Assembly: GCF_002531755.2 (NCBI RefSeq)
Contig: NZ_CP035002.1
Coordinates: forward strand, 310,001-374,000
From: Rhizobium acidisoli
Lineage (GTDB): Bacteria > Pseudomonadota > Alphaproteobacteria > Rhizobiales > Rhizobiaceae
Direction: 5' to 3'
Length of the DNA stretch: 64,000 nt
A program made the translations under genes and the position numbers. The notes beneath the pieces are model-generated. The model was not told where the DNA came from, ran no database searches, and saw only the letters and a program-made list of their open reading frames with translations. Position 1 is the first letter of the stretch. The number at the start of each line of letters is the position of its first letter. Positions 37,074 through 50,832 of the stretch are shown piece after piece.

Positions 37074-37175
37074 GATATTCTCCTCCCGTGACATTGGGGA
37101 GGACTATGACTTTGGCTGGAAAAACCGTCTTGGGGAGAAACGCACCTCGTCTTGGACGGAAGCGCAAATTGCGCG

Positions 37176-38162
37176 TCAGACCATCTTTGGCACCGGTTCG
37201 CCGGCGCGCAGCAGCTCGCTCGGCGCACAATCGAACAGTTCCTTGAAGCTGCGGTTGAAATAGGAAATGTCGTTGAAGCCGGCGGAATAGGCGACTTCGG
37301 CGATCGTTCCGGTGTTGCGCTGCTCCTTGAGCTGCTCGATCTTTTCGCGTGCAAAGCGCAGGCGCTTGTCGCGGATGACGGTGGTGCAGGTCATGCCCAG
37401 TCCCTGGAAGTCCTGCTGCAGCGTGCGGATCGAAACGCCGAGCCTCGTCGCCAGCCATTTGGCGCTGAGATCGCTCTCGGTCAGGTGTTTGTCGATCAGA
37501 ATATCGACCATCTGCATGCGCCTGCCGGCACTCTCATGCAAGGAAGTCAGGCTTGCCGTCTGGATGTCGGTCGACAGAAATGCCTGGCGCGTCGTGTCGA
37601 ACATCAGCTGGCGCAGATGCGGCGAGGCCGCTTCGCTTTCCGGCGTCGTCATCATCTTGGCGATCAGCGCACGCAGCATCATCGTCATCGGATCGTCGGC
37701 CGCAAGCTTGCGGGCCACGTCGAAATCCACCTTGCTGCCCGAATATATCAATTGCCGCGGCAAATGCAGGGACAGATGATTGGAGAAGTGACCGCGGAAA
37801 TAGAAGGTGGTCGGCCGCGTGGAATCGACCAGAATGCATTCGCCGACATCGAGAATGTTCTGCTGGCCGGAATGCTCTACGCCACAGGCTCCCTCGAGCT
37901 GCAGGATCAGGAACAGATGCTCGTGGGCATCGCGGCGAATATCGTCCCAGCCGCGATGGACATAATCGAGATCGTTGGAGACATGGGCGAATTCCATGCC
38001 GCAGACGTCGATGCGGCTTGCCGTGCCGACCACCTTGTCGCCGCGCTCCATCGTGTGCGGATTGAAATTCCCACAGATGTTATGAAGATCGTCCGACCAT
38101 TGATCGTAAGGTGTCGGCGCCCAGGCGCGATCGACGAGGCTGCGGTTCTGCAACAGGTCCAA
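37176..38162 (-). CDS. AraC-family regulator (FeaR-like)
   Basis: A 328-residue regulator with an N-terminal FeaR/AraC-binding-like domain (about 30-200, including RRDAHEHLFLILQLEGACGVEH and CILVDSTRPTTFYFRG) and C-terminal AraC helix-turn-helix pairs (LSAKWLATRLGVSIRTLQQDFQGLG; IAEVAYSAGFNDISYFNRSFKELFDCAPSELLR). The start codon is TTG, fixed by GGGAGG five bases upstream. FeaR controls phenylacetaldehyde dehydrogenase and amine oxidase genes in E. coli, which fits the GMC/ALDH genes directly downstream. A near-copy of the hpaF operator lies about 65 bp before the start, so HpaR may regulate it. Confidence 0.87.
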   Translation of the reverse strand: MDLLQNRSLVDRAWAPTPYDQWSDDLHNICGNFNPHTMERGDKVVGTASRIDVCGMEFAHVSNDLDYVHRGWDDIRRDAHEHLFLILQLEGACGVEHSGQQNILDVGECILVDSTRPTTFYFRGHFSNHLSLHLPRQLIYSGSKVDFDVARKLAADDPMTMMLRALIAKMMTTPESEAASPHLRQLMFDTTRQAFLSTDIQTASLTSLHESAGRRMQMVDILIDKHLTESDLSAKWLATRLGVSIRTLQQDFQGLGMTCTTVIRDKRLRFAREKIEQLKEQRNTGTIAEVAYSAGFNDISYFNRSFKELFDCAPSELLRAGEPVPKMV

Positions 38163-38225
38163 CTCTGCCTCCCAACAGTGTCAATACCGCGGAAGACTGC
38201 CGCAGACCGGGCGGGTCGTCAATCG

Positions 38226-38243
38226 TATATTTAACACATTAAT
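38226..38243 (-). promoter_or_regulatory. HpaR operator candidate upstream of the AraC gene
   Basis: TATATTTAACACATTAAT matches the hpaF promoter element TATATTTAACATGTTAAT at 16 of 18 positions. It lies in the 111-bp gap between hpaR and the FeaR-like gene, next to a TTGACG -35-like element on the minus strand (plus-strand 38217-38222). A shared site in both promoters would place the two regulators in one circuit. Confidence 0.6.
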
Positions 38244-38273
38244 CAAGCGGCTTTCCACAGCGACCGAAAGGCG

Positions 38274-38747
38274 TCACTCTTCACCGCTCGTCCCACCTTC
38301 GAGTCTCAGCGCCGTCAGTTCGTCAAGCATGTCCAAGAGTTGCTCGACCCGCTCTCCACCGAAGCGAGCACCTATATCGGCGTAGACCTTCAGGCTCTCC
38401 GGCATGACCTCGTCGACCATTGCCCGCCCTGCGGCCGTAATCCGCAGCAGCACCCGTCGGCCGTCGGCCTTGTCCTTATGTTTGGTGATGAAGCCGCGCT
38501 CCTCGAGCGAGCGGATCATGCGCGTCAGGCTCGGCGCCAGGATCGAGGCCTTTTCCGCCACTTCGCTTGCATCGAGCGTTCCCGCTTCCGAGAGCACACG
38601 AATGACCCGCCACTGCTGCTCGGTTACATCATGCGCCGCCAGGATCGGCCGGAAATGGCTCATCACCGCTTCGCGCGCACGCAAAAGCCCGATCGCCAGG
38701 GACCGCTGGCGCTCCTGCGGCGACCGGCTGGTCGGCGACGAGGGCAT
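38274..38747 (-). CDS. hpaR: Homoprotocatechuate degradation regulator, MarR family
   Basis: A MarR-family repressor of 157 residues from the ATG at 38747. An ATG at 38777 and a still longer form are in frame; none has a perfect ribosome site, and the shorter one is closest to the E. coli HpaR length. The core SLAIGLLRAREAVMSHFRPILAAHDVTEQQWRVIRVLSEAG matches the HpaR pattern almost residue by residue, followed by the winged-helix ILAPSLTRMIRSLEERGFITKHKDKADGRRVLLRIT. HpaR represses hpa genes and is relieved by 4-HPA or homoprotocatechuate. It lies 19 kb from the hpaF operon but next to a matching operator. Confidence 0.9.
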   Translation of the reverse strand: MPSSPTSRSPQERQRSLAIGLLRAREAVMSHFRPILAAHDVTEQQWRVIRVLSEAGTLDASEVAEKASILAPSLTRMIRSLEERGFITKHKDKADGRRVLLRITAAGRAMVDEVMPESLKVYADIGARFGGERVEQLLDMLDELTALRLEGGTSGEE

Positions 38748-39036
38748 TTCGCGTTTATCCTGCTGTCCATTCTTCATGCGGGTTCCGATCGCGCAGCTGT
38801 TGAATGCGGGATTTTCCGCTGGCCTTGAGCAGCCGGCGGAAAACCGCAAGACAGCTAGTTAACACAGCAACGACCAACCACAAGCCCAGCCTCTCGATCG
38901 ACCGACAAAGCCTATGAACATCGTGGACGGTCGCCGGTCTTTTGCAGAGCAAACGCCGACAGCGTACCCTCGCTTCGACGATACCCCTTTCGCAAGTTCA
39001 TTCAGGCGCTATGGTGTTGGAAAAACAAGGGCGAGC

Positions 39037-39303
39037 ATGGGACAAGATACAAGCCACCTTCAGGAGCGGATGACGATTATCGGTGATCTCAAGGCTGCGT
39101 CCTTTATCCCCTGGATCCGGCGCCATGCCGCCAAACTCGGGCTCTCGCACAGCATATCGCATGCAAGTTCAATGCGGATAGAACTCGAGCTTTCAGGACC
39201 GGAGGAGTTGATCGACATGATGGAGGTGGGGTGCTCACTGGGGCCAATCGACGTATGGGTCGAGAGCATAGAACGCACTGCGATGATCGGCGAAACGGCC
39301 TGA
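39037..39303 (+). CDS. Small protein with degenerate acylphosphatase-like fold
   Basis: An 88-residue protein (ATG at 39037; a longer reading from 38914 adds a low-complexity N-terminus without a convincing ribosome site). The order of elements resembles acylphosphatase: a first strand ending in the GDLKAASFIPWIRRHAAKLGLSHSI loop-helix, then MRIELELSGPEELIDMMEVGCSLGPIDVWVESIERT. In true acylphosphatases the loop ends in GFR with a catalytic Arg, and an Asn follows in the next strand. Here the Arg position is Ile and no clear Asn is present, so it is probably not an active enzyme. It sits alone between hpaR and the Rieske gene. Confidence 0.6.
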   Translation: MGQDTSHLQERMTIIGDLKAASFIPWIRRHAAKLGLSHSISHASSMRIELELSGPEELIDMMEVGCSLGPIDVWVESIERTAMIGETA

Positions 39304-39391
39304 CACCAAATGCGGTTTTTGCGATATGCATATTATTTAACCATTGTTGCCAATGCGAAAAAACTATGCAAACGTGAGGCCTTGAGCGTAT

Positions 39392-39405
39392 CGTTTTACA
39401 AAACG
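39392..39405 (+). promoter_or_regulatory. Palindrome upstream of the Rieske/purine operon
   Basis: CGTTTTACAAAACG is a perfect 6-bp inverted repeat with a 2-bp centre, 25 bp before the Rieske ATG, in an otherwise AT-rich 126-bp leader. Its size suits a dimeric repressor, and its place suggests that it overlaps the transcription start. The cognate regulator is not obvious in the cluster. Confidence 0.5.
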
Positions 39406-39429
39406 TAGTATGGTTCAGGAAGTCTAGTC

Positions 39430-40083
39430 ATGCCATCCGATCCGACCGGCTTTTGGACGCCAGTCGCCCTTTCCCGGGATCTGCCGGCCGCTACCGTCAT
39501 GCCGGCCCGGACGGCATCTGGATCGATCGCCCTCTGGCGCAGCGCTTCGGGGCGTATATCGGCATCGGCGGATCGCTGTCCGCACCGCGGCATGCGCTTG
39601 TCTCATGGCTTCGTGCGCGGCGAGGCACTTTCGTGCATCTATCACGGCTGGAGCTATGGCGAGGCCGGAAACTGTCTGCGCATTCCCGCCCATCCGGGAC
39701 TGGCGCCGCCGGAAACCATCCGTGTCGCCACCCATGAAGTCGAGGAAGCAGGCAGCGTGATCTGGGTGGCCGTCGGCACGCCCGCTTCGAAGCCGCCGAG
39801 GCTTGACGGCCTCATTCCCCTACGCTCGCTGACGGCGTTTGCAGGCACCGCCGCGATTGAAGCGGCGGCCGGCGTGAAGGCGAACCCTGACGGTCTTCTC
39901 GAGATCGACGCACCCACCGGCACTCTCTGTCTGCTACTATCCGCCCAGGAAGACGGTCAGACGCTGATCCATGTGCTCCTGAAGGATGACGTCGGCCCTG
40001 CCGCGGCCATCGGCGCTTCGCAGGCCGCCGAAAGTCTGCGGCGCCGGGCTGAGGATCTTCAGAAAAAGGAGATCGCGCGGTGA
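39430..40083 (+). CDS. Stand-alone Rieske [2Fe-2S] protein of a split oxygenase
   Basis: A 217-residue protein whose N-terminal half is a Rieske domain: Cys50 and His52 in CPHRG, Cys69 and His72 in CIYHGW, spaced C-x-H-x16-C-x2-H as in ring-hydroxylating oxygenases. The domain ends at SVIWVAVG near 109-116. The remaining 100 residues contain no mononuclear-iron triad but have an oxygenase-like end (PTGTLCLLLSAQEDGQTLIHVLL, then a helix). The next gene encodes an oxygenase catalytic domain without Rieske ligands and starts inside this stop (GTGA). The likely role is electron delivery to that subunit, as the Rieske domain of NdmD does for NdmC in P. putida CBB5. No reductase gene is nearby. Confidence 0.87.
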   Translation: MPSDPTGFWTPVALSRDLPAATVMPARTASGSIALWRSASGRISASADRCPHRGMRLSHGFVRGEALSCIYHGWSYGEAGNCLRIPAHPGLAPPETIRVATHEVEEAGSVIWVAVGTPASKPPRLDGLIPLRSLTAFAGTAAIEAAAGVKANPDGLLEIDAPTGTLCLLLSAQEDGQTLIHVLLKDDVGPAAAIGASQAAESLRRRAEDLQKKEIAR

Positions 40084-40925
40084 GCATGCAGGCGATGATC
40101 GACGAATGGTATCCGGTTGGGCTTTTCAGTCAGCTCGATAGCGCCGGTCGCAAGACGGCGCTGATGGGCGAGCCGATCGAGGTGGCGCGCGACGCCGATG
40201 GCAATGCGAGGGTCACGGGCGGCGACGGCCGTGTTTTGCCGGTGCGCGTGCGTTACGGCCATGTCTGGTCCTCGCTCGGCGAACCGCAGAAGGAAATTTT
40301 CCCGATTCCCGAGGCCGACCAGCCCGGCCGCCGTTTCGTCGACGTCGGCGTGGTGCGCGTGCGCTGCTCGCCCCTGCGCGCCGTCGAGAATTTTCTCGAC
40401 ATTGCCCATTTCCCCTTCGTCCACACTGACATTCTCGGCGCGGAGCCGCACACCGAGGTTCAGAACTACACGGTCGAGATCCGCGAGGAGGAAGATGAAG
40501 TCTGGGCAACGCAGGTGAAGTTTTACCAGCCGCAGGCCGCCAAATCGGCAAGCGGCGGCATCACCACGGAGTATATGTACCGCGTGCCGGCACCAACCTG
40601 CTCCGTGCTCTACAAGACCTGCCCGCCGCGTCCGAGCGAATGGGATGTCATCACGCTCTTCGTGCAGCCGCTGGCCGAGGACCTGTGCGACGTCTGGCCG
40701 TGGATGGCGCTTTTCGATGACGAGACCGCGATGACCGATCTCATCCACTTCCAGCAGACGATCTTCCTGCAGGACCGTTCGATCCTGGAAAACCAGATCC
40801 CGCCGCTTCTGCCGCTCGATCCCGGCATGGAAATCCCGACGCGGGCCGATCTCACATCGATCGCCTACCGACGCTGGCTGAAGCGTCACAATTATACCTA
40901 TGGCGCGCAGCTGGTGGCGCAATGA
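40080..40925 (+). CDS. Rieske-less oxygenase catalytic subunit (NdmC-like)
   Basis: A 281-residue protein from a GTG overlapping the previous stop (or 279 from the ATG at 40086). The N-terminus follows a Rieske-oxygenase alpha subunit (DEWYPVGLFSQ, MGEPIEVARDADG) but jumps straight to VLPVRVRYGHVWSSLGEP: the whole cluster-binding segment with its two Cys-x-His pairs is absent. The catalytic domain is intact: ENFLDIAHFPFVH provides Asp107, His110 and His115, and QDRSILENQ near 231-239 offers the third ligand Asp232. This is the architecture of the N7-demethylase NdmC. Coupling to a Rieske gene upstream and a GST-like gene downstream supports an N- or O-demethylase or hydroxylase on a modified purine. 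Confidence 0.87.
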   Translation: MSMQAMIDEWYPVGLFSQLDSAGRKTALMGEPIEVARDADGNARVTGGDGRVLPVRVRYGHVWSSLGEPQKEIFPIPEADQPGRRFVDVGVVRVRCSPLRAVENFLDIAHFPFVHTDILGAEPHTEVQNYTVEIREEEDEVWATQVKFYQPQAAKSASGGITTEYMYRVPAPTCSVLYKTCPPRPSEWDVITLFVQPLAEDLCDVWPWMALFDDETAMTDLIHFQQTIFLQDRSILENQIPPLLPLDPGMEIPTRADLTSIAYRRWLKRHNYTYGAQLVAQ

Positions 40926-41584
40926 AGCTCTACGACTACATTCTCTCCCCCAGTTGCTACAAGGTGCGCCTGATGGCGGCGCTGACCGGCGTGAAACTGG
41001 AACTCCGCCCGGTGGATTTCCATCCCGGCGCCGAGCATCGCGGCCCCGAGCTTCTCGCCCTCAATCCGGCAGGCTCCATTCCAATCCTGGAGGATGGCGA
41101 TCTGATCCTGACCGAGTCGTCGGCGATCCTCGTTTATCTCGCCGCCAAGGCAGCACCCGAATGGCTTGGCAGCGGCAAGGCCGAGGAAGCGGCCCGGGTG
41201 CAGCAATGGCTGTCGTTCTCGGGCCGGCTGACGGCAAGCCTGGGTGGCGCACGGCTTCATGAAATGCTGCTGCGGCCGGGCGATATCGACGCGCTGCAGG
41301 CCCAGGGCATCGCCGCACTTCGCGAGCTTGAGGCCGGGCTCGTCGAGCAGGGTCTTCGCGGCATGCGCTATCTTGCCGCCGACCGGCCGACAATCGCCGA
41401 CATCGCCTGCTTTCCCTATGTGGCGCTGGCACCCGATGGGGGCGTGGCGCTGGATTCCTATCCCGCCATCCGGCTTTGGTCGCGGGCACTGCGCGCCCTC
41501 GACAGGTTTATCGAAATGCCGGGTATTCACCGGCTGCACGAATTGAAGCCCGAACCTCATATCGAAGAACCGGGCGAGGCGTGA
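40922..41584 (+). CDS. Glutathione S-transferase-family protein (NdmE-like)
   Basis: A 220-residue GST-fold protein: N-terminal thioredoxin-like domain (KLYDYILSPSCYKVRLMAALTGVKLELRPVDF, with the ESSAIL glutathione-binding segment near 62-67) and an all-helical C-terminal domain. Its ATG overlaps the oxygenase stop (ATGA). In P. putida CBB5 a GST homolog, NdmE, is required to assemble the split N7-demethylase and is thought to be structural rather than catalytic. The same gene order here suggests the same scaffold role. A catalytic, glutathione-dependent role remains possible. Confidence 0.87.
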   Translation: MKLYDYILSPSCYKVRLMAALTGVKLELRPVDFHPGAEHRGPELLALNPAGSIPILEDGDLILTESSAILVYLAAKAAPEWLGSGKAEEAARVQQWLSFSGRLTASLGGARLHEMLLRPGDIDALQAQGIAALRELEAGLVEQGLRGMRYLAADRPTIADIACFPYVALAPDGGVALDSYPAIRLWSRALRALDRFIEMPGIHRLHELKPEPHIEEPGEA

Positions 41585-41585
41585 C

Positions 41586-42965
41586 ATGGCGGGATATCTC
41601 CTGAAGAACTGCACGGCCGTGATTGTCGACGATGGCAAGGGGCCGGTCGTCCGTCGCAATGTCGATCTGCTAACCGACGGTTCGGCGATTGTGGCGATCG
41701 GTGAAAATCTGGCGGCGGACGCGCTTCGCGACGGCACGACCGTTCAGGATGCCACCGGCTGGTTCGTCTATCCCGGCCTCGTCAATACCCATCATCATTT
41801 TTTTCAATGCTTCGTGCGCAATCGCGCCGATCTCGACTGGACGAAGCTTTCGGTCATCGAGTGGCTGGACCGCATCTACCCGATCTTTTCGCAGCTCAAT
41901 GAGGCGTGTTTTTACCACTCCTCCGTCACGGCGATGGCCGAGATGATCAAACATGGCTGTACCACGGCGTTCGACCATCAATATAATTTCCCCCGGCACG
42001 CCGGGAAGCGGCTGATCGACCGCCAGTTCGAAGCCGCCGAGCTCTTCGGCATGCGCTTCCACGCTGGCCGCGGCGGCAATACTCTGCCGAAGTCGCAGGG
42101 CTCGACCATTCCCGACGAGATGCTGGAAACGACCGACGAATTTATCGCCGACTGCGCCCGGCTGATCGACACTTACCACGATGCCAAGCCGTTCAGTATG
42201 CGCCAGGTCGTGGTGGCGCCCTGCCAGCCGGTGAATTGCTATCGCGAGACCTTTGCGGAATCGGTGGCGCTAGCGCGTGATCGCGGCGTCATGATGCACA
42301 CCCATGTCGGCGAGGGCGAAAGCCCGGTCATTCACGCTCGTTATGGTATGCGCACCGTCGACTATCTGGAAGAACTCGGCTTTGCCGGCCCCGACGCCTT
42401 CTATGCCCATTGCTGGGAGTTGACCCACGACGAACTCAGGACGATGGCGGCGAGCCGCACCGGCGTGGCGCACTGCCCCGAACCGGTTTATCTTGTCGGC
42501 GCCGAGGTCACCGATATTCCCGCCATGGCCGCCCTCGGCCTGCGCATCGGCCTTGGCTGCGACGGGGCCGCCTCCAACGACAATTCCAATCTGATGCACT
42601 GCCTGCACTCTGCCTATATGCTGCAGTGCCTGGTATCTTCGAGCCGCGCCCATCCCGTGCCGCCGCCCGTCGATTTCCTCGGCTACGGCACGACAGGCGG
42701 TGCGAGCCTGCTCGGCAGGCGCGACATCGGCCGGCTGGCGCCCGGCATGGCAGCCGACCTGTTTGCGATTGACACGCGTCGCATGGATTATGTCGGTACG
42801 CGGCACGATCCGTTGAGCCTGATTGCCCGCGTCGGCATCGGCATGGCGACCGATATGACGATGATCAATGGCCGCATCGTCTGGCAGAACGGGGAGTTTC
42901 CCGGTCTCGACGAGGCCAAACTGTCGGCCGACGCCGAGGCTGCACTATCCGCCGTAGAATTTTAA
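41586..42965 (+). CDS. Amidohydrolase, 8-oxoguanine deaminase/guanine deaminase-like
   Basis: A 459-residue amidohydrolase-superfamily deaminase (TrzN/AtzB/8-oxoguanine deaminase branch). Metal-site residues are visible: His69 and His71 (NTHHH), His240 in MMHTHVGEGES with Glu243, His275 (YAHCW) and Asp326 (GCDGAAS). The overall pattern, including LDWTKLSVIEWLDRIYPIF near the N-terminus and NDNSNLM after the Asp, is that of 8-oxoguanine deaminase-type proteins acting on amino-purines or s-triazines. It follows the GST-like gene by one base and precedes a nucleoside-type ABC importer, so a purine base is the most likely substrate. Confidence 0.87.
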   Translation: MAGYLLKNCTAVIVDDGKGPVVRRNVDLLTDGSAIVAIGENLAADALRDGTTVQDATGWFVYPGLVNTHHHFFQCFVRNRADLDWTKLSVIEWLDRIYPIFSQLNEACFYHSSVTAMAEMIKHGCTTAFDHQYNFPRHAGKRLIDRQFEAAELFGMRFHAGRGGNTLPKSQGSTIPDEMLETTDEFIADCARLIDTYHDAKPFSMRQVVVAPCQPVNCYRETFAESVALARDRGVMMHTHVGEGESPVIHARYGMRTVDYLEELGFAGPDAFYAHCWELTHDELRTMAASRTGVAHCPEPVYLVGAEVTDIPAMAALGLRIGLGCDGAASNDNSNLMHCLHSAYMLQCLVSSSRAHPVPPPVDFLGYGTTGGASLLGRRDIGRLAPGMAADLFAIDTRRMDYVGTRHDPLSLIARVGIGMATDMTMINGRIVWQNGEFPGLDEAKLSADAEAALSAVEF

Positions 42966-42990
42966 AAAGCCAAAAGAGGGAACTGAGAAC

Positions 42991-44088
42991 ATGACCAAAC
43001 TGACCCGCAGAAACCTGATGACGGCCGCTGCCGCCACCGGCCTTGCCGGCGCGCTCGGCAGCCGTCTTGCTTTCGCCGCCGACCAGCCGCTCGGCATCAC
43101 CCTCGTCGTCCCTTCGCCGATCGGCGACGTCGGCTGGGGGCACGCCCTTGCCGCCGGCCTCGAGCCGATCAAGGCCGCTTACGGCGACAAGGTGAAGGTC
43201 ACCGTGCTTGAGAATATCGCCGAAGGCCCGGACGCCGACCGCATTATGACCAAGACGGTCGCCGACGGAAACAAGTTTCTGATCGCCGGCTCCTTCGGCT
43301 ATCAGAACGGCGCCCTGCAGATCGCCCGCCGTGATCCGAGCGTGACGGTCCTGCATGCCTCCGGCTTCCAGGTTGCTCCCAATTTCTCGCCGTTCGCCGC
43401 CAAATATTTCCAGGGCACCTATCTGCTCGGCATGGCAGCGGCGGCACTCAGCAAGACCGGTAAGCTCGGCTCCGTCTCGGCCTTTGCCATTCCCGAACTC
43501 ATCACCTCGATCAATGCCTTTACGCTCGGCGCCCAGGCGGTCAAGCCGGATATCGAAGTCTCCGTCGTCTGGGTCAATTCCTGGTTCGACCCGGCCAAGG
43601 AGCAGGAGGCAGCCAAGGCGCTGATCGCACAGAAGTGCGACGTGATCTTCTCCAATGCCCAGGATACGCCATCCGTCATCTCGGCTTGCGAAGACGCCGG
43701 CGTCTACGCCTTCAACCTCAACTCCTCGATGAAGAAATATGCGCCGAAAACTTATCTCGGCTGCGTCTCGACGGATTGGTCGCCGTTCTTCAAGGCCTCG
43801 GTCGATGCCCATCTCGCCGGCACGTTCAAGGGGGCCAATGCGTTTCTCGGCGTTGCCGACAAGGTTGTCGAGGTGGTCGACTGGAGCGCCGATATTCCGG
43901 CCGACGTGATGGCCAAGATCAAAGAGGTCGAGGCAAAGATCGCCGACGGCAGCTTCTCGCCCTTCACCGGGCCGATCACCAAGGCCGACGGCAGCGAAGG
44001 TGTGGCCTCGGGCGCAACCATGGCCGACCCCGAGATCATCGCCATGAATTGGCACGTCAAGGGCGTCTCGACGCCGCTGCCGAAATAA
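42991..44088 (+). CDS. BMP-family ABC transporter substrate-binding protein
   Basis: A 365-residue periplasmic protein of the basic membrane protein (BMP/PnrA) family, which binds nucleosides, purines and related compounds. A twin-arginine-like leader (LTRRNLMTAAAATG) precedes an Ala-rich signal ending FAADQP. The ligand-binding region has the usual IAGSFGYQNGALQIARRDPSVTVLHASGF block and the C-terminal FTGPITKADGSEGVASGATMADPEI. It is the first gene of a complete importer (two-domain ATPase and two permeases) transcribed with the oxygenase and deaminase genes. Confidence 0.9.
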   Translation: MTKLTRRNLMTAAAATGLAGALGSRLAFAADQPLGITLVVPSPIGDVGWGHALAAGLEPIKAAYGDKVKVTVLENIAEGPDADRIMTKTVADGNKFLIAGSFGYQNGALQIARRDPSVTVLHASGFQVAPNFSPFAAKYFQGTYLLGMAAAALSKTGKLGSVSAFAIPELITSINAFTLGAQAVKPDIEVSVVWVNSWFDPAKEQEAAKALIAQKCDVIFSNAQDTPSVISACEDAGVYAFNLNSSMKKYAPKTYLGCVSTDWSPFFKASVDAHLAGTFKGANAFLGVADKVVEVVDWSADIPADVMAKIKEVEAKIADGSFSPFTGPITKADGSEGVASGATMADPEIIAMNWHVKGVSTPLPK

Positions 44089-44091
44089 TTC

Positions 44092-45612
44092 ATGACCACC
44101 CCGCTCCTGTCGCTGCGCGGCATTTCGAAAAGCTACGGCCAGATCCACGCCAATCAGGCAATCGATCTGGACGTGGCTCCGCAATCGATCCATGCGATCC
44201 TCGGAGAAAACGGGGCGGGAAAATCGACGCTGATGAAGCTGATCTACGGCGTCGAGCAGCCAGACGACGGAGATATCGTCTGGCAAGGCACTCCCTTGCG
44301 CCTCGCCTCCCCGGCGGAGGCGAGGCGCAAGGGCATCGGCATGGTCTTCCAGCATTTTTCGTTGTTCGAGACCTTGACGGTCATCGAGAATATTCGGCTG
44401 GTGGTGCCGGGTCGCAAAGCTGATCTCAAGGAACGTATCCGGACGCTTGGACGGGAGTTCGGCCTCGAGGTCGATCCGCTCGCCCATGTGCATTCGCTGT
44501 CCGTCGGCGAGCGGCAACGGGTGGAGATCATCCGCAGCCTGATGACCAATCCGAAGCTGCTGATCCTCGACGAGCCCACCTCCGTCCTGCCGCCGCAAAT
44601 GGTGGAGAAGCTCTTCGACACCCTGCTTCGGCTGCGCGACGGCGGCGTTTCCATCCTGCTGATTTCCCACAAGCTCGAAGAAATTCGGGCGATTTGTGAC
44701 CGCGCGACAATCCTGCGCGGCGGGCGCGTGACCGGGGATGTCGATCCGCGCGAGCATGATGCTCATGACCTTGCCCGGATGATGATCGGCCGCGATATGC
44801 CCGCACCCATCTCGGCGCTGCCGCTGTCTGGCGGGGAAAAGCGGCTGGAGATCATCGGTTTGGACCACCAGCCCGACGATCCCTTTGCGGTGCCGCTCTC
44901 CGGCCTCAGCCTTGCGGTACGTGCCGGCGAAATTCTCGGGATCGCCGGTGTTTCGGGCAACGGCCAAAGTGAGCTTGCGGCGCTGATTTCGGGCGAGACC
45001 ATGCTGGGGCGCGAACAACGCGACCGGATCTACATGATGGGAACGGATGTCGGCAGGCTCGATGCCGCCGCGCGGCGGCAGCTCGGATTTGCCTTCGTTC
45101 CGGAAGACCGGCTCGGACGCGGCGCCGTGCCCGAAATGTCGCTCGTCCTCAACAGCCTGCTGACGGCCCATCCGCTCAAGCTTTTACGGCGTGGTCTCAT
45201 CGAAAGGGCACGGGCGATGACGTTCACCAAGGATTGTATCCATCAGTATGATGTCCGCACATCCGGCCCGGATGCGGAAGCCGGCACCCTGTCCGGCGGC
45301 AACCTGCAGAAGTTCATCGTCGGCCGCGAAATCATGCTGTCTCCGAAATTGCTTTTCGTGGCGCAGCCGACCTGGGGCGTCGATGTCGGCGCTGCCTCTG
45401 CTATCCGCAGCCGCCTGGTCGCATTGCGCAATCAGGGCATGGCGATCCTCGTCATTTCCGAGGAGCTGGAAGAACTGTTCGAACTCTGCGATTGCATCCA
45501 GGTGCTGCATCACGGCCGGCTCAGCCCGCCGCTTGCAACGCGGGACACCAAGCCTGAGGAGATCGGCCGATACATGATCGGGGCCCATGCCTCGCCCGAG
45601 AAAGTTCAATAA
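44092..45612 (+). CDS. ABC transporter ATP-binding protein, two NBDs (BMP-type importer)
   Basis: A 506-residue protein with two fused ATPase domains, as in nucleoside and ribose importers. The first has Walker [10 protein letters not shown] (38-46), signature LSVGERQRVEI and Walker [14 protein letters not shown]. The second has a degenerate Walker A (GVSGNGQSE) and Walker B LLFVAQPTWGVD, with signature LSGGNLQKFIVGRE; a weak second site is normal in this family. It follows the binding-protein gene by 3 bp and overlaps the first permease gene by one base (TAATG). Confidence 0.9.
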   Translation: MTTPLLSLRGISKSYGQIHANQAIDLDVAPQSIHAILGENGAGKSTLMKLIYGVEQPDDGDIVWQGTPLRLASPAEARRKGIGMVFQHFSLFETLTVIENIRLVVPGRKADLKERIRTLGREFGLEVDPLAHVHSLSVGERQRVEIIRSLMTNPKLLILDEPTSVLPPQMVEKLFDTLLRLRDGGVSILLISHKLEEIRAICDRATILRGGRVTGDVDPREHDAHDLARMMIGRDMPAPISALPLSGGEKRLEIIGLDHQPDDPFAVPLSGLSLAVRAGEILGIAGVSGNGQSELAALISGETMLGREQRDRIYMMGTDVGRLDAAARRQLGFAFVPEDRLGRGAVPEMSLVLNSLLTAHPLKLLRRGLIERARAMTFTKDCIHQYDVRTSGPDAEAGTLSGGNLQKFIVGREIMLSPKLLFVAQPTWGVDVGAASAIRSRLVALRNQGMAILVISEELEELFELCDCIQVLHHGRLSPPLATRDTKPEEIGRYMIGAHASPEKVQ

Positions 45613-46712
45613 TGAGCGTCTGGTTTCCTGCTTCCCTTCCCACCCTGGTCCGCCGGGAGCGCGCCTCGCTGGCCGCCGCCCTCTGCGCACCCGTCATCGC
45701 GCTCGGGGGCGCGATCGCACTTAATCTCGGCCTTTACGTCTTGATGGGTCGCGACCCCGTCGCGGTCGTCTATGCGATGCTTTTCGAACCCTTCCTCTCC
45801 TGGGCTTCATTTTCGGAGGTGCTGTTAAAGGCTGGGCCCCTCCTCCTCATCGCCCAGGGGCTGGCAATCGGCTTTCGCGCCAAGGTTTTCAATATCGGCG
45901 CCGAAGGCCAGTTTATCCTTGGGGCGATCTTCGCTTCCGCCATTCCAGTCTGGTTTCCCCAGGCGACGGGCCAGTGGATCTGGCCGGCGATGCTGCTGCT
46001 TGGCGCCATCGGCGGCACGATTTGGGCGTCTCTCACTGCTTTCTGGCGCGTTCGCCTCAACGCCAATGAGATCCTCGTTTCGCTGATGCTGAGCCTCGTT
46101 GCCGCGCAATTGTTGAACTATCTGCTGCTCGGCCCCTGGAAGGATCCGAACGGCTTCAATTTCCCGCAGTCGGTGATGTTCCAGTACGATGCGATGGTGC
46201 CGACCCTGATTGCCGGGACTCGCGTCAACGTCTCTTTCCTCATCACCCTCGTTTTGTCGGTTGCCGCCTGGGTCTTCATGCAGAAGAGCTTCATCGGCTA
46301 CAAGCTGCAGGTCGGTGGTCTGGCGCCGCGCGCTGCCGGCTACGCCGGCTTCAGGGAAGGTTGGGCGATCTGGCTTTCGCTGCTGATCGGCGGTTTTGCT
46401 GCCGGTCTTGCAGGTGCTGCCGAAGTGGCCGGTCCGCTCGGCCAGCTGCAGCGTTCGGTCGCGAGCGGCTATGGTTATGCGGCCATCATCGTCGCCTATC
46501 TCGGCGGCCTGCATCCAATCGGGATCGTGGCCTCGGCGCTGGTCATGGCGGTTATCTATATCGGCGGCGACAATGCCATGGTCTCGGCCAGCCTGCCGAT
46601 CGCCGCCGTCCGCGTCTTCCAGGGTAGTCTGCTGCTCGCCTACCTCATCGCCGTCGCCTTCGTGCGCTATCGTCTTGAATGGCGCCGCACGGCCCAGCGG
46701 AGCCTGCCATGA
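45612..46712 (+). CDS. ABC transporter permease (BMP-type importer), subunit 1
   Basis: A 366-residue inner-membrane permease with about nine or ten membrane segments. The GLAIGFRAKVFNIGAEGQFILGAIF motif near 88-112 is the signature of nucleoside-type permeases (YufP/NupP group), as are WRVRLNANEILVSLMLSLVA and the C-terminal GYGYAAIIVAYLGGLHPIGIVASAL. It overlaps its neighbours on both sides by one and four bases, so the importer is translated as a unit. Confidence 0.9.
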   Translation: MSVWFPASLPTLVRRERASLAAALCAPVIALGGAIALNLGLYVLMGRDPVAVVYAMLFEPFLSWASFSEVLLKAGPLLLIAQGLAIGFRAKVFNIGAEGQFILGAIFASAIPVWFPQATGQWIWPAMLLLGAIGGTIWASLTAFWRVRLNANEILVSLMLSLVAAQLLNYLLLGPWKDPNGFNFPQSVMFQYDAMVPTLIAGTRVNVSFLITLVLSVAAWVFMQKSFIGYKLQVGGLAPRAAGYAGFREGWAIWLSLLIGGFAAGLAGAAEVAGPLGQLQRSVASGYGYAAIIVAYLGGLHPIGIVASALVMAVIYIGGDNAMVSASLPIAAVRVFQGSLLLAYLIAVAFVRYRLEWRRTAQRSLP

Positions 46713-47620
46713 ACGCCATCGAGTTCATTCTTGCCGGCATGCTTGCGGCTGCGACACCGTTTCTTCTGGCGGCACTCGGCGAATTGGTGGCCGAGCGCGC
46801 CGGTGTTCTCAACCTCGGGGTCGAGGGATTGATGGCCCTTGGCGCCGTGCTCGCCTTCATCGTCGTTTATCATGGCGGCGGACATTTTCTCGGCTTCATC
46901 GTCGCAGGGCTCGGCAGCGCCGCCCTTTCACTGCTCTTTGCCTTCGTCACGCTCGGGTTCCGGGCAAACCAGGTGGCTGCCGGCCTTGCCATCGGCATTC
47001 TTGGCCAAGGCCTTTCGGCCCTCTTCGGCAAGACCTATGAAAGCCTGACGGTCAAGGGTCTTCCAAAGCTTGCTCTTCCAGCGCTGTCGGAACTGCCTGT
47101 CATCGGCGGCCTTTTCGTCCAGGACATCGTCGTGTGGATTTCGCTCGCCGCGACGCTGGCTCTTTGGGCCATACTTGCCTACACCAAGCTTGGTCTCATC
47201 GTCCGCGCCGTCGGCGAGAACCCGAAGGCCGCCCACGCCATCGGCTATTCGGTGATATCGGTCCGTATCCTCGCCATCGCCTTCGGTGGCGCGATGGCAG
47301 GTTTCGCCGGCGCCTATGCGGCGGTCGTCTACACACCACTCTGGGCTGACGGGATGATCGCCGGACGCGGCTGGATCGCCATCGCCCTCGTCGTCTTCGG
47401 GACCTGGCTCACCGGTCGCATCTTCCTTGGCGCCTGTCTTTTCGGCGCAGTCTCGCTGATGGGTCTTGCGGCCCAAGCAACCGGACTGGATGTTCCCTCG
47501 CAGCTATTGTCAAGCCTGCCCTATCTCGTCACGATCATCGTGCTCGGCATCATCTCCGCCGACCGTCGCCTGCTGAAACTGAACGGTGTTGCGTCGCTCG
47601 GTGAACCATTCGAGCGATAG
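46709..47620 (+). CDS. ABC transporter permease (BMP-type importer), subunit 2
   Basis: A 303-residue permease with about eight membrane segments and the signature ALGELVAERAGVLNLGVEGLMALGAVLAF at 22-50, typical of the second nucleoside-type permease (YufQ/NupQ group). GKTYESLTVKG in the middle and VGENPKAAHAIGYSVISVR are further family marks. The ATG overlaps the previous stop (ATGA). A decayed copy of part of this gene (equivalent to about 46961-47039) occurs at 49046-49122. A 198-bp non-coding gap follows, holding a weak CTTCCG/CGGAAG hairpin at 47669-47686. Confidence 0.9.
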   Translation: MNAIEFILAGMLAAATPFLLAALGELVAERAGVLNLGVEGLMALGAVLAFIVVYHGGGHFLGFIVAGLGSAALSLLFAFVTLGFRANQVAAGLAIGILGQGLSALFGKTYESLTVKGLPKLALPALSELPVIGGLFVQDIVVWISLAATLALWAILAYTKLGLIVRAVGENPKAAHAIGYSVISVRILAIAFGGAMAGFAGAYAAVVYTPLWADGMIAGRGWIAIALVVFGTWLTGRIFLGACLFGAVSLMGLAAQATGLDVPSQLLSSLPYLVTIIVLGIISADRRLLKLNGVASLGEPFER

Positions 47621-47818
47621 ACATCGTGCGGTCTGTTGATTACCGCCGGTATGCTGATTACCTTGATACTTCCGTCCATTCGGAAGGGTCGCAAGGAAGC
47701 ATTCGAAGCAAGCGAAGATGAAGCTGCGGGGAGGCTGGCAGTCGGTATCGGTGGATGCAATCGCATTCACCGCCTTCTCCAAGGAAGCAAATTCGTCTGT
47801 AATCCAACGGAGTAAGCC

Positions 47819-49006
47819 ATGAAAATAAGCAGCCTTGACACCCGTCGGTCGGCCCGACTGGCGCAGGCTATGCTCTGCCTCGATGACTTTGAGCCAAAGG
47901 CAAAACGGCACCTGCCAAAGCCGCTCTACGGCTATATTTCCGGTGGAAGCGAAACCAACGCATCGCTGCGAAATAATCTCGACGCCTTTCAGGCCTATGC
48001 GTTTCGGCCGCGTATTCTCCAGGACGTATCGAAGCGAAGTACCGAAACGACCTTATTCGGTCAGACCTATACCGCCCCATTCGGTATCGCCCCAATGGGG
48101 ATCAGCGCGCTCATGGCCTATCGCGGCGACATTGTTCTTGCCGCCGGCGCAGCGCAGGTCGGCATTCCGATGATCATGAGCGGATCCTCGCTCATCCGGC
48201 TCGAAGAGGTTGTTGCCGCCGCGCCCGCGACCTGGTTCCAAGCCTACCTGCCCGGAGAGCCCGAACGCATCGATGCGTTGGTGGACCGCGTTGCTGCGGC
48301 AGGCTTTGGCACCTTGTTGCTGACCGTCGATACGGCCACGCTCCCGAACCGGGAAAACAATATCCGGGCGGGCTTCTCGACGCCTCTGCGGCCCAGCCTT
48401 GCTTTGGCCTGGCAGGGTGTTTCGCACCCGCAATGGACCATCGGGACATTTTTGCGCACGATCGCCCGCCACGGCATCCCGCATTTCGAAAACTCCTACG
48501 CAACCCGAGGCGCACCCATCATCGCCTCGAACGTTACGCGGGACTTTGGCCGAAGAGACCATCTGAACTGGAGCCATCTCGAGCGCATCCGCAACCGCTG
48601 GAACGGCAAGCTGATCGTCAAGGGCATTCTTCATCCGGACGATGCGGCGCGTGCTGCCGAGACAGGGGCTGACGGGGTAATCGTCTCCAATCACGGTGGC
48701 CGTCAGCTCGATGGCGCCATCTCTCCGCTCGCGGCGCTTCCCGAGATCGTGGAACGCCTGGGCGACAGGATCCCCATCATGATCGATGGCGGCTTTCGCC
48801 GCGGAACCGATATTATCAAGGCTTTGGCGCTGGGGGCACGTTTCGTGTTTGTCGGGCGGCCGTTCCTTTATGCGGCGGCCGTTGCCGGTCTGCCTGGCGT
48901 ATTGAGGGCGGCAGACATCCTAAAATCTGAGCTCCATAGCAATATGGCCCTGCTTGGCGTTACAACGATCGAGCAAATTTCACGCGGCCACCTCGTTCCG
49001 GCTTGA
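47819..49006 (+). CDS. FMN-dependent alpha-hydroxy-acid oxidase/dehydrogenase
   Basis: A 395-residue enzyme of the LldD/glycolate-oxidase family that oxidises 2-hydroxy acids to 2-oxo acids. The FMN and catalytic residues are present: Lys268 (LIVKGI), catalytic His292 and Arg295 in VSNHGGRQLDGA, and the MIDGGFRRGTDIIKALALGA phosphate-binding segment. The N-terminal YISGGSETNASLRNN replaces the more common YxxGGAxDExT. It lies between two nitrogen-type importers, separated by 198 bp from the permease upstream. A link to purine breakdown (glyoxylate or lactate from demethylation or ureides) is only a guess. Confidence 0.9.
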   Translation: MKISSLDTRRSARLAQAMLCLDDFEPKAKRHLPKPLYGYISGGSETNASLRNNLDAFQAYAFRPRILQDVSKRSTETTLFGQTYTAPFGIAPMGISALMAYRGDIVLAAGAAQVGIPMIMSGSSLIRLEEVVAAAPATWFQAYLPGEPERIDALVDRVAAAGFGTLLLTVDTATLPNRENNIRAGFSTPLRPSLALAWQGVSHPQWTIGTFLRTIARHGIPHFENSYATRGAPIIASNVTRDFGRRDHLNWSHLERIRNRWNGKLIVKGILHPDDAARAAETGADGVIVSNHGGRQLDGAISPLAALPEIVERLGDRIPIMIDGGFRRGTDIIKALALGARFVFVGRPFLYAAAVAGLPGVLRAADILKSELHSNMALLGVTTIEQISRGHLVPA

Positions 49007-49045
49007 CGAGATAAGCCGTGATCTCTCGCCGGCGCGGATCGTCCT

Positions 49046-49122
49046 CGCGAACCATCTGGCAGCGGGCGTAGCATCGGCATCTTTTGCTAAAGCCTCTCGG
49101 CCCTTTTCGGCAAAGACCTATG
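49046..49122 (+). pseudogene. Decayed fragment of a BMP-type permease gene
   Basis: By eye, about three quarters of the bases align with 46961-47039 inside the second permease gene. The shared parts are the codons for ANxxAAG, an ATCGGCAT block, CTCTCGGCCCTTTTCGGC and AGACCTATGA. The fragment has at least two single-base indels and an in-frame TAA, so it cannot be translated as permease. It looks like the rest of an older importer gene or a partial duplication. Confidence 0.55.
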
Positions 49123-49328
49123 ACTGGAGCGATAATTTCGGCTTGATGGTCCCGGCCAGGCGACCGAAACGGCGCGTGTGCACTGCACAAACAGGCGCAT
49201 TCATGACTGCGAGCATAGCAGCAATCGCCTAATGCATCATCATTTAGTATAGATGCCTAAAATATAATCAACTGTGGAATTGCGAAGTATCTCCTGTTGA
49301 TTCAGGCAGTTATCGGCCGCTTTCAGGA

Positions 49329-49345
49329 TTGGCACGCTGATTGCA
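49329..49345 (+). promoter_or_regulatory. Sigma-54 (-24/-12) promoter of nrtABC
   Basis: TTGGCACGCTGATTGCA matches the RpoN consensus (TGGCAC, five bases, TTGC) exactly at the invariant GG and GC positions. It lies 174 bp upstream of the binding-protein start. In rhizobia such promoters on nitrate and other nitrogen genes are activated by NtrC under nitrogen limitation. A TGTGCA/TGCACA repeat about 140-150 bp upstream could be part of an activator site. Confidence 0.75.
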
Positions 49346-49518
49346 GGTTCTAAGGCGCATCGGTCAACGGCGACCGGCGCGGATAGGCGCGGCATTCAGC
49401 GCCTACACAGACACCGACGTCGCAAGGTCTTTGCACTCCAGGATACTCCCATCTCTGGACGTAAATTCCGGCGGCGTTTTTTTGCGTCCGAATTCAGCAA
49501 GCAGAGGGGAACCTGCAG

Positions 49519-50832
49519 ATGAAAAAGATTTCGACGACTGGGATTTCGACAACCGGCATTACCCGCCGCAGCATGCTCAAGACGACCGCAACGGCTGCCC
49601 TCATCGGCGCCGTGAAGACTGCCTTTCCGTCCGGCGCCTTTGCCGCCGGGGCGGGCCCTGAAGTGAAAGGCATCAAGCTCGGCTTTATCGCGCTCACGGA
49701 TTCCGCGCCGCTGATCATCGCTAAAGAAAAGGGCTTTTTCGACAAGCACGGCCTTCCGGAAACAGATGTGGCCAAACAGGCATCTTGGGGCGCGACCCGC
49801 GACAATCTCGTGCTGGGCGGCGCAGCAAACGGCATCGACGGTGCCCACATCCTCTCGCCGCTGCCCTATCTCATGCATACCGGCAAGGTGACGCAGAACA
49901 ACAAGCCGGTGCCGATGTCGATCCTCGCCCGGCTCAACCTCGACAGCCAGGGCATTTCCGTCGCCAAGGAATATGCCGAAACCGGCGTGCAGCTCGACGC
50001 CTCCAAGCTGAAGGCCGCCTTCGAGAAAAAGAAGGCGGAAGGTAAGGAGGTCAAGGCTGCCATGACCTTCCCTGGTGGGACCCACGATCTCTGGATCCGC
50101 TACTGGCTCGCCGCCGGCGGCATCGACCCGAACAAGGACGTTTCCACAATCGTCGTGCCGCCGCCGCAGATGGTTGCCAATATGAAGGTGGGCAACATGG
50201 ACGTCTTCTGTGTGGGCGAGCCGTGGAATGAGCAGCTCGTCAACCAGGGCATCGGCTTTACCGCGGCGACCACCGGCGAGCTCTGGAAGGGGCATCCCGA
50301 AAAGGCGCTGGGGCTCCGCGCCGAATGGATCGAAAAGAATCCCAATGCCGCCAAGGCCCTGCTGATGGCTGTCATGGAGGCTCAGCAGTGGTGCGAGAGC
50401 ATGGATAACAAAGCGGAGATGGCCGATATCCTCGGCAAGCGCCAGTGGTTCAACGTTCCGACCAAGGACGTGCTCGGCCGCCTCAAAGGCGACATCAATT
50501 ATGGCAATGGCCGCGAGGCCAAGGCCACCGACCTCTACATGAAGTTCTGGAAAGACGGCGCCTCCTATCCGTTCAAGAGTCACGACACCTGGTTCATGAC
50601 GGAAAACATCCGCTGGGGAAATCTGCCTGGTACAACCGACATCAAGGCGCTGGTCAACCAGGTGAACCGCGAGGACGTCTGGCGCGAGGCCGCCAAGGAT
50701 CTCGGCGTTGCTGCAGCCGATATTCCCGCCTCGTCCTCCCGCGGCAAGGAGACCTTCTTCGACGGCAAGGTTTTCGATCCCGAAAATCCCTCCGCCTATC
50801 TCGACAGCCTTTCGATCAAGGCCGTCTCCTGA
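49519..50832 (+). CDS. nrtA: Nitrate-type ABC transporter substrate-binding protein
   Basis: A 437-residue exported protein of the NrtA/CmpA family. A twin-arginine leader (TRRSMLKT, 15-22) precedes an Ala-rich segment ending FAAGAGP. The body has LGFIALTDSAPLIIAKEKGFFDKHGL, KQASWGATRDNLVLGG and the ligand-region GGTHDLWIRYWLAAGGIDP, all typical of NrtA. Nitrate or nitrite is the best guess, though bicarbonate and cyanate binders belong to the same family. It is the first gene behind the sigma-54 promoter, followed by the permease and one ATPase. Confidence 0.87.
   Translation: MKKISTTGISTTGITRRSMLKTTATAALIGAVKTAFPSGAFAAGAGPEVKGIKLGFIALTDSAPLIIAKEKGFFDKHGLPETDVAKQASWGATRDNLVLGGAANGIDGAHILSPLPYLMHTGKVTQNNKPVPMSILARLNLDSQGISVAKEYAETGVQLDASKLKAAFEKKKAEGKEVKAAMTFPGGTHDLWIRYWLAAGGIDPNKDVSTIVVPPPQMVANMKVGNMDVFCVGEPWNEQLVNQGIGFTAATTGELWKGHPEKALGLRAEWIEKNPNAAKALLMAVMEAQQWCESMDNKAEMADILGKRQWFNVPTKDVLGRLKGDINYGNGREAKATDLYMKFWKDGASYPFKSHDTWFMTENIRWGNLPGTTDIKALVNQVNREDVWREAAKDLGVAAADIPASSSRGKETFFDGKVFDPENPSAYLDSLSIKAVS

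What the first reader, a model, noticed from the sequence alone, without database searches (positions are those of the whole stretch)
39430..47620. Split Rieske oxygenase + GST + purine-type deaminase + nucleoside-type importer in one coupled operon
Seen: seven co-directional genes with overlaps or gaps of at most 25 bp encode a lone Rieske protein, a Rieske-less oxygenase subunit, a GST-fold protein, an 8-oxoguanine-deaminase-like amidohydrolase and all four parts of a BMP-family importer. Known: in P. putida CBB5 the 7-methylxanthine N7-demethylase is split between NdmC (no Rieske) and NdmD (Rieske fused to reductase) and needs the GST homolog NdmE. Inference: this is a relative that carries its Rieske domain as an independent protein, and it works on an imported modified purine (for example a 7-methyl- or oxidised guanine/xanthine) that is also deaminated. 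The combination with a dedicated importer and deaminase looks like an undescribed modified-purine scavenging pathway.
Basis: partly seen in the sequence, partly recalled or inferred. Interest (0 to 1): 0.92.

Follow-up and report, generated by a model that had tools for sequence, protein, structure and literature searches.

The report
Split demethylase operon for methylated guanines
A conserved gene cluster in root-nodule bacteria and their kin appears to import methylated guanines and strip them to xanthine, using an oxygenase broken into two complementary proteins plus a recently described enzyme that removes a dimethylamino group.

Summary
The genes are real: eight tightly coupled genes (39430-47620), plus a missed upstream acylphosphatase-like gene (39037-39303). 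The eight-gene order is intact in 79 of 80 fetched relatives; the 80th contig ends early.

The oxygenase is 45% identical to NdmC and the GST-fold protein 41% to NdmE of a Pseudomonas plasmid locus. The 'Rieske' gene is more than a Rieske domain: 215 of its 217 modelled residues align to whole Rieske-oxygenase subunits, so it is one that lost much of its catalytic domain, while the oxygenase lost the iron-sulphur part.

The amidohydrolase is not an 8-oxoguanine deaminase by score or residues. It is 80% identical to a Pleomorphomonas oryzae protein and has all 13 listed residues of N2,N2-dimethylguanine hydrolase (NdmH), an enzyme published in 2026 whose physiological context its authors are still investigating.

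Best reading: uptake of a dimethylated guanine (perhaps 2,2,7-trimethylguanine), N-demethylation by the split oxygenase, hydrolysis to xanthine and dimethylamine. The genome has guanine deaminase, xanthine dehydrogenase and a DmmA-type locus elsewhere. The oxygenase's substrate and reductase are unproven.

The parts
   Evidence: R. johnstonii copy annotated acylphosphatase; Pfam 17.0 bits, under cut-off 22.5; L190 copy 29.3, over it; L123 copy no match; AF2 pLDDT 88.0, Foldseek top hits acylphosphatases; 79 of 80 close loci; 39 of 41 split loci, 0 of 21 fusion loci; profile alignment to PDB acylphosphatases puts Val/Ile at the Arg and His at the Asn; that these two are the catalytic residues is recalled
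39347..39373 (+). conserved intergenic element (TTGCCAATGCG...TATGCAAAC), probable promoter or operator of the Rieske operon
   Evidence: aligned upstream stretches of 81 sequences, window included; function inferred
39430..40083 (+). Rieske electron-transfer protein (217 aa): intact Rieske domain plus truncated catalytic-domain remnant
40080..40925 (+). NdmC-type oxygenase (281 aa) without the [2Fe-2S] subdomain; D107, H110, H115, D232
   Evidence: 45% to the NdmC-position protein of a P. putida plasmid; VanA_C 69.7 bits; the four residues invariant in 71 of 71; deletion seen in alignment
40922..41584 (+). GST-fold protein, NdmE-like
   Evidence: 41% over 205 aa to the NdmE-position protein of L122
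41586..42965 (+). NdmH-type amidohydrolase (N2,N2-dimethylguanine hydrolase)
   Evidence: 80% to P0222 of Pleomorphomonas oryzae; 13 of 13 published residues at the same numbers
42991..44088 (+). BMP-family solute-binding protein, nucleobase type, Tat-like signal
   Evidence: nearest solved structures 3s99 (4e-80) and AtzT (5.5e-79); pocket comparison; weak TAT models
44092..45612 (+). ABC importer ATPase
   Evidence: PF00005, two stretches
45612..46712 (+). ABC importer permease 1
   Evidence: PF02653 128 bits
46709..47620 (+). ABC importer permease 2 (an in-frame start at 46679 also exists)
   Evidence: PF02653 111.5 bits; start as in the R. johnstonii annotation, 4-bp overlap

Best explanation
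This is an import-and-degrade operon for N-methylated guanine bases. (1) A BMP-type ABC importer brings the free base in (inferred from homology to the guanine-binding protein AtzT). (2) A split N-demethylase works on it: the Rieske protein and the oxygenase are two diverged oxygenase subunits with complementary losses. The first keeps the [2Fe-2S] cluster and has lost the catalytic iron site; the second keeps the catalytic iron and has lost the cluster part. Electrons pass from one protein to the other as they do between neighbouring subunits of ordinary Rieske oxygenases (recalled); the GST-fold protein, and probably the acylphosphatase-like protein, hold the complex together (inferred). The methyl removed is most likely on N7, as in NdmCDE. 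(3) The NdmH-type amidohydrolase cleaves the 2-dimethylamino group, giving xanthine and dimethylamine. (4) Chromosomal xanthine dehydrogenase takes xanthine onward, and a DmmA-type locus elsewhere in the genome could take the dimethylamine. Together, steps 2 and 3 fit N2,N2-dimethylguanine or its 7-methyl derivative. Shown by sequence or model: gene order, family relations, the 13 NdmH residues, the complementary truncations and the downstream genes. Inferred: substrate, order of steps, electron donor and complex.
For: NdmH identity. NdmC and NdmE relation, with the P. putida locus anchored by its neighbours NdmB (6icl, 9.5e-236) and NdmD (6icm_D, 4.7e-47). Module conserved in 79 of 80 loci. 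Complementary truncation from the AF2 model and near-whole-length alignment, NdmD-linker homology (probability 98) and the alignment gap. Importer nearest to 3s99 and to AtzT, which binds guanine at 110 nM. The genome already has canonical GuaD (574.2 bits) and XdhA, XdhB and XdhC over cut-off, so neither plain guanine nor xanthine needs this operon. It also has a DmmA-family gene (117.3 over 60) beside trimethylamine monooxygenase (851.1 over 675). Related clusters carry GuaD instead of NdmH. Between these two types the binding proteins differ at positions 169 and 218 (next to the guanine amine in AtzT) and at a residue inserted after 218, while no oxygenase position is fixed differently (9 vs 5 rows): the same oxygenase step, with a different C2 group.
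Against: No enzyme of the split clade is known to me to be characterised. No reductase lies in the operon; the nearest NdmD-reductase-like matches in the genome are 33%, 29% and 29% and lie on other contigs. A FrmA gene (60% or more identity) is near 8 of 21 fusion-type loci but 0 of 41 split-type loci, which does not favour demethylation. NdmH alone turns N2,N2-dimethylguanine into xanthine, so the oxygenase step needs a further methyl group that nothing here shows. A strong DmmA is in only 7 of 15 type-A genomes, so dimethylamine use is not obligatory. The oxygenase is also 30% identical to an HpxD-like protein. The two-type comparison rests on few sequences, and the GuaD type is not one branch of the tree.
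Confidence: 0.6

Rival explanations
1. Xanthine-to-urate route: NdmH makes xanthine from N2,N2-dimethylguanine, and the split oxygenase then hydroxylates xanthine at C8, like the molybdenum-free xanthine hydroxylase HpxD.
For: HpxD-annotated proteins are among the hits (27-30%); the oxygenase is 30% identical over 229 residues to an HpxD-like protein beside hpxO; no FrmA near split loci.
Against: 45% to NdmC against 30% to the HpxD-like protein. The genome has complete canonical xanthine dehydrogenase genes, so the step would be redundant.
Confidence: 0.17
2. Broad methylguanine salvage (overlaps with the best reading): one importer serves several RNA-derived bases; the oxygenase demethylates 7-methylguanine (or another monomethyl guanine) and NdmH separately hydrolyses N2,N2-dimethylguanine and, weakly, guanine. 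The two enzymes act on different substrates.
For: AtzB-cluster enzymes are promiscuous (PMC13054789). GuaD replaces NdmH in sister clusters with the same oxygenase type.
Against: The binding protein's listed pocket residues are nearly invariant within the NdmH type (8 rows, L227 the exception), which suggests one preferred ligand.
Confidence: 0.3
3. 8-oxoguanine or 7-methylxanthine scavenging.
For: Best NCBIfam hit of the amidohydrolase is 8-oxoguanine deaminase.
Against: Below cut-off; the window has N165, Q214, N217 and W85, whereas the seven 8-oxoguanine-deaminase-like copies in the panel have M, S, S and a gap at 85. A deaminase would not be needed for 7-methylxanthine.
Confidence: 0.05

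Closest known systems
NdmCDE, 7-methylxanthine N7-demethylase of Pseudomonas putida CBB5
   Same: Rieske-less oxygenase of similar length (45% to the copy of a P. putida plasmid locus), partner with the Rieske domain and the same remnant C-terminal part, GST-fold protein (41%)
   Different: In NdmD the Rieske part is fused to an NADH reductase; here it stands alone, no reductase is near, and an acylphosphatase-like gene is added (39 of 41 split loci, 0 of 21 fusion loci)
NdmH, N2,N2-dimethylguanine hydrolase (PMC13054789, 2026)
   Same: 80% identical to the P. oryzae protein; all 13 listed catalytic, substrate-flanking and CQNN residues
   Different: The parts of the paper that I read give no operon or transporter; here the gene sits in a transport-plus-oxygenase operon, which the probable P. 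oryzae genome also carries (L186)
AtzT, guanine-binding periplasmic protein (PMC6834077)
   Same: Same BMP subfamily; S97, F98, T139, E165, W194 and N218 kept
   Different: W at 45, S at 169, D at 220 and one inserted residue next to N218, the residue that faces the guanine amine
HpxD, molybdenum-independent xanthine hydroxylase
   Same: Rieske-family purine oxygenase, about 30% identity in the catalytic part
   Different: the L121 HpxD-like protein carries its own Rieske domain in the same chain

Membership tests
NdmCDE-type split N-demethylase | oxygenase subunit lacking the Rieske cluster but keeping the mononuclear iron ligands | tested here: met
   cluster part absent in alignment; D107, H110, H115, D232 in 71 of 71
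NdmCDE-type split N-demethylase | Rieske domain supplied in trans, fused to a reductase | tested here: not met
   supplied in trans, but as a 217-aa protein without reductase
NdmCDE-type split N-demethylase | GST-fold partner gene | tested here: met
   41% to the NdmE-position protein
NdmCDE-type split N-demethylase | N7-demethylation of 7-methylxanthine | not testable with these tools
   needs enzymology
NdmH (N2,N2-dimethylguanine hydrolase) | catalytic Q74, E243, H275, D326; flanking W85, W93, Y98, Y133, P300; CQNN set C213, Q214, N217, N165 | tested here: met
   13 of 13 in window and P0222, same numbers
NdmH (N2,N2-dimethylguanine hydrolase) | hydrolyses N2,N2-dimethylguanine to xanthine | not testable with these tools
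   needs enzymology
8-oxoguanine deaminase | NCBIfam model score over its cut-off | tested here: not met
   369.9 vs 532 bits
BMP nucleobase importer (AtzT type) | aromatic sandwich and contact residues at 45, 97, 98, 165, 194, 218, 220 | tested here: inconclusive
   W, S, F, E, W, N, D: five identical, aromatic kept at 45, N to D at 220; binding itself not tested
acylphosphatase | acylphosphatase fold | tested here: met
   AF2 and Foldseek, 3trg E 5.8e-6, TM 0.81
acylphosphatase | catalytic Arg and Asn (roles recalled) | tested here: not met
   Arg aligned to Val/Ile and Asn to His in the profile alignment, itself weak (E 0.18 and 0.29)
HpxD xanthine hydroxylase | own Rieske domain in the same chain | tested here: not met
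   no Rieske domain in the 281-aa protein; 30% identity to an HpxD-like protein

The most novel reading that the evidence does not exclude
The operon is a dedicated salvage route for 2,2,7-trimethylguanine, the base of the trimethylguanosine cap of eukaryotic small nuclear RNAs: importer, split N7-demethylase, then dimethylamine-releasing hydrolysis to xanthine. Sister operons with guanine deaminase in place of NdmH would do the same for 7-methylguanine from messenger-RNA caps and tRNA.
Probability: 0.25. Interest if true: 0.88.

Novelty: new variant of a known kind. Interest (0 to 1): 0.74.

Why it matters
It offers a physiological setting for NdmH, which its discoverers say they are still investigating, and so a candidate natural context for the enzyme lineage from which they argue the herbicide-degrading AtzB arose (abstract). 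It shows a Rieske oxygenase divided into two subunits with complementary losses, useful for studying electron transfer between subunits. It links an acylphosphatase-fold protein to Rieske chemistry. It predicts a catabolic route for methylated guanines from RNA turnover, testable in Rhizobium with a few knock-outs.

Tried and rejected
8-oxoguanine deaminase function: set aside on score and residues. Riboswitch: Rfam scan of 37000-50000 gave 0 matches at E up to 1. Acylphosphatase-like domain hidden in the NdmD linker: not found (hmmsearch best E 0.043 of 22 proteins, and not in the linker; hhalign probability 0.2). A palindrome CGTTTTACAAAACG upstream of the Rieske gene was tested as a conserved operator: 2 of 81 sequences (window and L018), rejected. 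FMN dehydrogenase downstream (47819-49006): found at its place in only 1 of 80 loci, so not part of the module. Oxygenase positions separating NdmH-type from GuaD-type clusters: none found. Similarity of the Rieske C-terminal part to the oxygenase by profile alone was weak (probability 35, E 4e-4, against best 0.043 of 20 column-shuffled controls and 0.46 reversed) and was accepted only with the structural alignment. NdmH in wider samples: 12 of 249 genomes of the order at E up to 1e-80, of which 5 at 80% identity or more and 7 at 36-41%; in the class sample only the window's own genome of 385 at E up to 1e-100.

Literature: seven completed searches bear on this question; one search was for AtzT. 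None of the titles in their capped listings describes this operon. The library holds only openly licensed PMC papers. Seen of each paper: PMC4408171 passages; PMC6834077 passages; PMC13054789 abstract, sections 7, 8, 11 and passages; PMC12828455 abstract and the first of three parts of section 5; PMC6186785 passages.
Full report
OBSERVATION. The eight ORFs lie on the + strand at the stated places with overlaps of 1-4 bp and gaps of 1-25 bp, and each carries the expected Pfam domain over cut-off. The window lies in a 7.5-Mb genome of five contigs. Its nearest named relatives are of the Rhizobium leguminosarum group, many on plasmids, for example pRL10 of R. johnstonii 3841. Of 80 related loci fetched (the best of 474 in the collection), 79 hold all eight genes in order and the last is cut by its contig end. 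Flanks differ between R. johnstonii pRL10, Shinella zoogloeoides p1 and R. etli p42c, which suggests a module that moves as a unit. Within it the Rieske gene varies most (median identity 66.5% against 83-90% for the others).

DISTRIBUTION. The oxygenase query matched 52 of 199 genomes of the family at E up to 0.001 (distant hits included), 47 of 297 of the order and 15 of 398 of the phylum at E up to 1e-40. These fall into neighbourhood types: A, with NdmH, as in the window; B, with guanine deaminase in place of NdmH; C, where one Rieske gene appears to serve two oxygenases; D, with an NdmD-type Rieske-reductase fusion, which includes the methylxanthine loci.

A MISSED NINTH GENE. A small ORF, 39037-39303, ends 126 bp before the Rieske gene; its start is chosen to match the R. 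johnstonii copy, annotated acylphosphatase. A profile built from seven copies finds it in 79 of 80 close loci. Among 67 wider loci examined, 39 of 41 with a standalone Rieske gene have it somewhere in the fetched stretch and 0 of 21 with the NdmD-type fusion have it; one further locus has both Rieske forms and the small gene, and four show no Rieske gene and no small gene. Three genomes (G191, G094, G792) each contribute the same Rieske gene to two overlapping loci, so the split group holds about 38 independent clusters. The predicted structure (pLDDT 88.0) matches acylphosphatases (3trg, E 5.8e-6, TM 0.81). Pfam scores the window copy under cut-off (17.0 vs 22.5), the L190 copy over it, and the L123 copy not at all. 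A weak profile alignment to solved acylphosphatases (E 0.18 and 0.29) puts valine/isoleucine at the conserved Arg and histidine at the conserved Asn; that these are the catalytic residues is recalled. I take it as a non-catalytic subunit of the split oxygenase (inference).

A quick tree of 71 oxygenases and 6 outgroup rows puts the oxygenases of types A, B and C and the other split loci in one branch of 43 rows (SH-aLRT 99). The fusion types and the caffeine-locus NdmC lie outside it, as does one row (L217) whose locus shows no Rieske gene. The tool warns of long outgroup branches, and support is SH-aLRT alone.

THE AMIDOHYDROLASE. NCBIfam's best hit is 8-oxoguanine deaminase, under cut-off. 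PMC13054789 (abstract, sections 7, 8 and 11, and passages) describes N2,N2-dimethylguanine hydrolases, among them poNdmH of Pleomorphomonas oryzae, and lists its residues. The P. oryzae protein P0222, 80% identical to the window protein, has every listed residue at the listed number, and the window protein has the same 13 at the same numbers. I therefore take P0222 to be poNdmH (inference from name and numbering). The seven 8-oxoguanine-deaminase-like copies, the six AmiRt-type copies and the seven GuaD copies in the panel lack the set. G430:C79, of another family, happens to have the same length but no NdmH-type gene in the stretch read. G839 carries the whole module (L186). NdmH releases dimethylamine and yields xanthine; the authors write that they are investigating its physiological context. 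Proteins on Aminobacter, Arthrobacter and Paenarthrobacter plasmids are about 56% identical to the window protein; calling them AtzB rests on their source and on recall.

THE IMPORTER. The closest solved structures are 3s99 and AtzT. AtzT carries guanine (Kd 110 nM) and its contact residues are published (PMC6834077, passages). The window protein keeps S97, F98, T139, E165, W194 and N218, has W for Y45, S for N169, D for N220, and one inserted residue after 218. The five GuaD-type rows read (one of them, L193, of unsure type) have I at 169, L at 218 and Y inserted; the NdmH-type rows have S (T in L227), N and A. Asn218 faces the guanine amine in AtzT and Asn169 holds it. With 9 and 5 sequences, no oxygenase position was fixed differently between the two types. 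This fits one oxygenase reaction shared by both types and a different group at C2, but the samples are small.

THE REST OF THE CELL. The genome has canonical GuaD (574.2 bits) and XdhA, XdhB and XdhC over cut-off, so the operon is not needed for guanine or xanthine themselves. It has a locus with a GcvT-like protein (DmmD-like by recall), a DmmA-family protein (117.3 over 60), a reductase, a protein with no NCBIfam match, and trimethylamine monooxygenase (851.1 over 675); that the locus makes a working dimethylamine monooxygenase is inferred. In the family sample, 7 of 15 genomes with an oxygenase of 60% or more identity have a strong DmmA (70 bits or more) against 27 of 184 others (Fisher p 0.005, relatedness not corrected). 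The co-occurrence is partial.

RESULTS AGAINST MY READING. FrmA (60% or more identity) lies near 8 of 21 fusion loci and 0 of 41 split loci. No reductase is linked; the best own-genome matches are 33%, 29% and 29%, and the best one is the DmmA-linked reductase. NdmH by itself does not need an oxygenase. An HpxD-like xanthine-hydroxylase role is not excluded (30% identity).

CONCLUSION. Confidence is high (about 0.9) that the amidohydrolase is NdmH-type and that the oxygenase is an NdmC relative, moderate (about 0.6) that the whole works as an importer plus N-demethylase plus dimethylamine-releasing hydrolase for methylated guanine, and low (about 0.25) for 2,2,7-trimethylguanine in particular. 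The confidences of the readings overlap and do not sum to one.

Noticed in passing
L123, L199/L200, L228/L229, L230, L231/L232, L218/L219: Larger clusters in which one Rieske gene, one GST gene and one acylphosphatase-like gene appear to serve two oxygenases, one beside guanine deaminase and a BMP importer, the other (read in all but L230) beside a molybdenum hydroxylase, an amidohydrolase, a GMC oxidoreductase and in most a TPP enzyme. Looks like a longer undescribed purine or pterin pathway.
   Followed up: partly
L124, L212, L214, L235, L239, L242: Tandem NdmC-like oxygenase genes followed by one NdmD-like fusion and NdmE, near a GntR regulator and a BMP importer; function unknown.
   Followed up: no
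L258 (Aminobacter plasmid pSR8) 6929-8386; Arthrobacter and Paenarthrobacter plasmids: Amidohydrolases about 56% identical to the window NdmH, probably AtzB; no oxygenase is annotated beside the gene in the one locus opened.
   Followed up: partly
L203 10323-12000: A split Rieske gene stands next to a standalone VanB-like reductase (325 aa, 37% to NdmD), a candidate for the missing electron donor type.
   Followed up: no
window 39347-39373: Strongly conserved intergenic element between the acylphosphatase-like and Rieske genes in otherwise variable DNA.
   Followed up: partly
window 35667-38849, - strand: Aldehyde dehydrogenase-like ORF (name by eye), AraC-type and HpaR-type (167.7 bits over 121.2) regulator genes upstream; absent beside the module in the three annotated relatives opened.
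   Followed up: no
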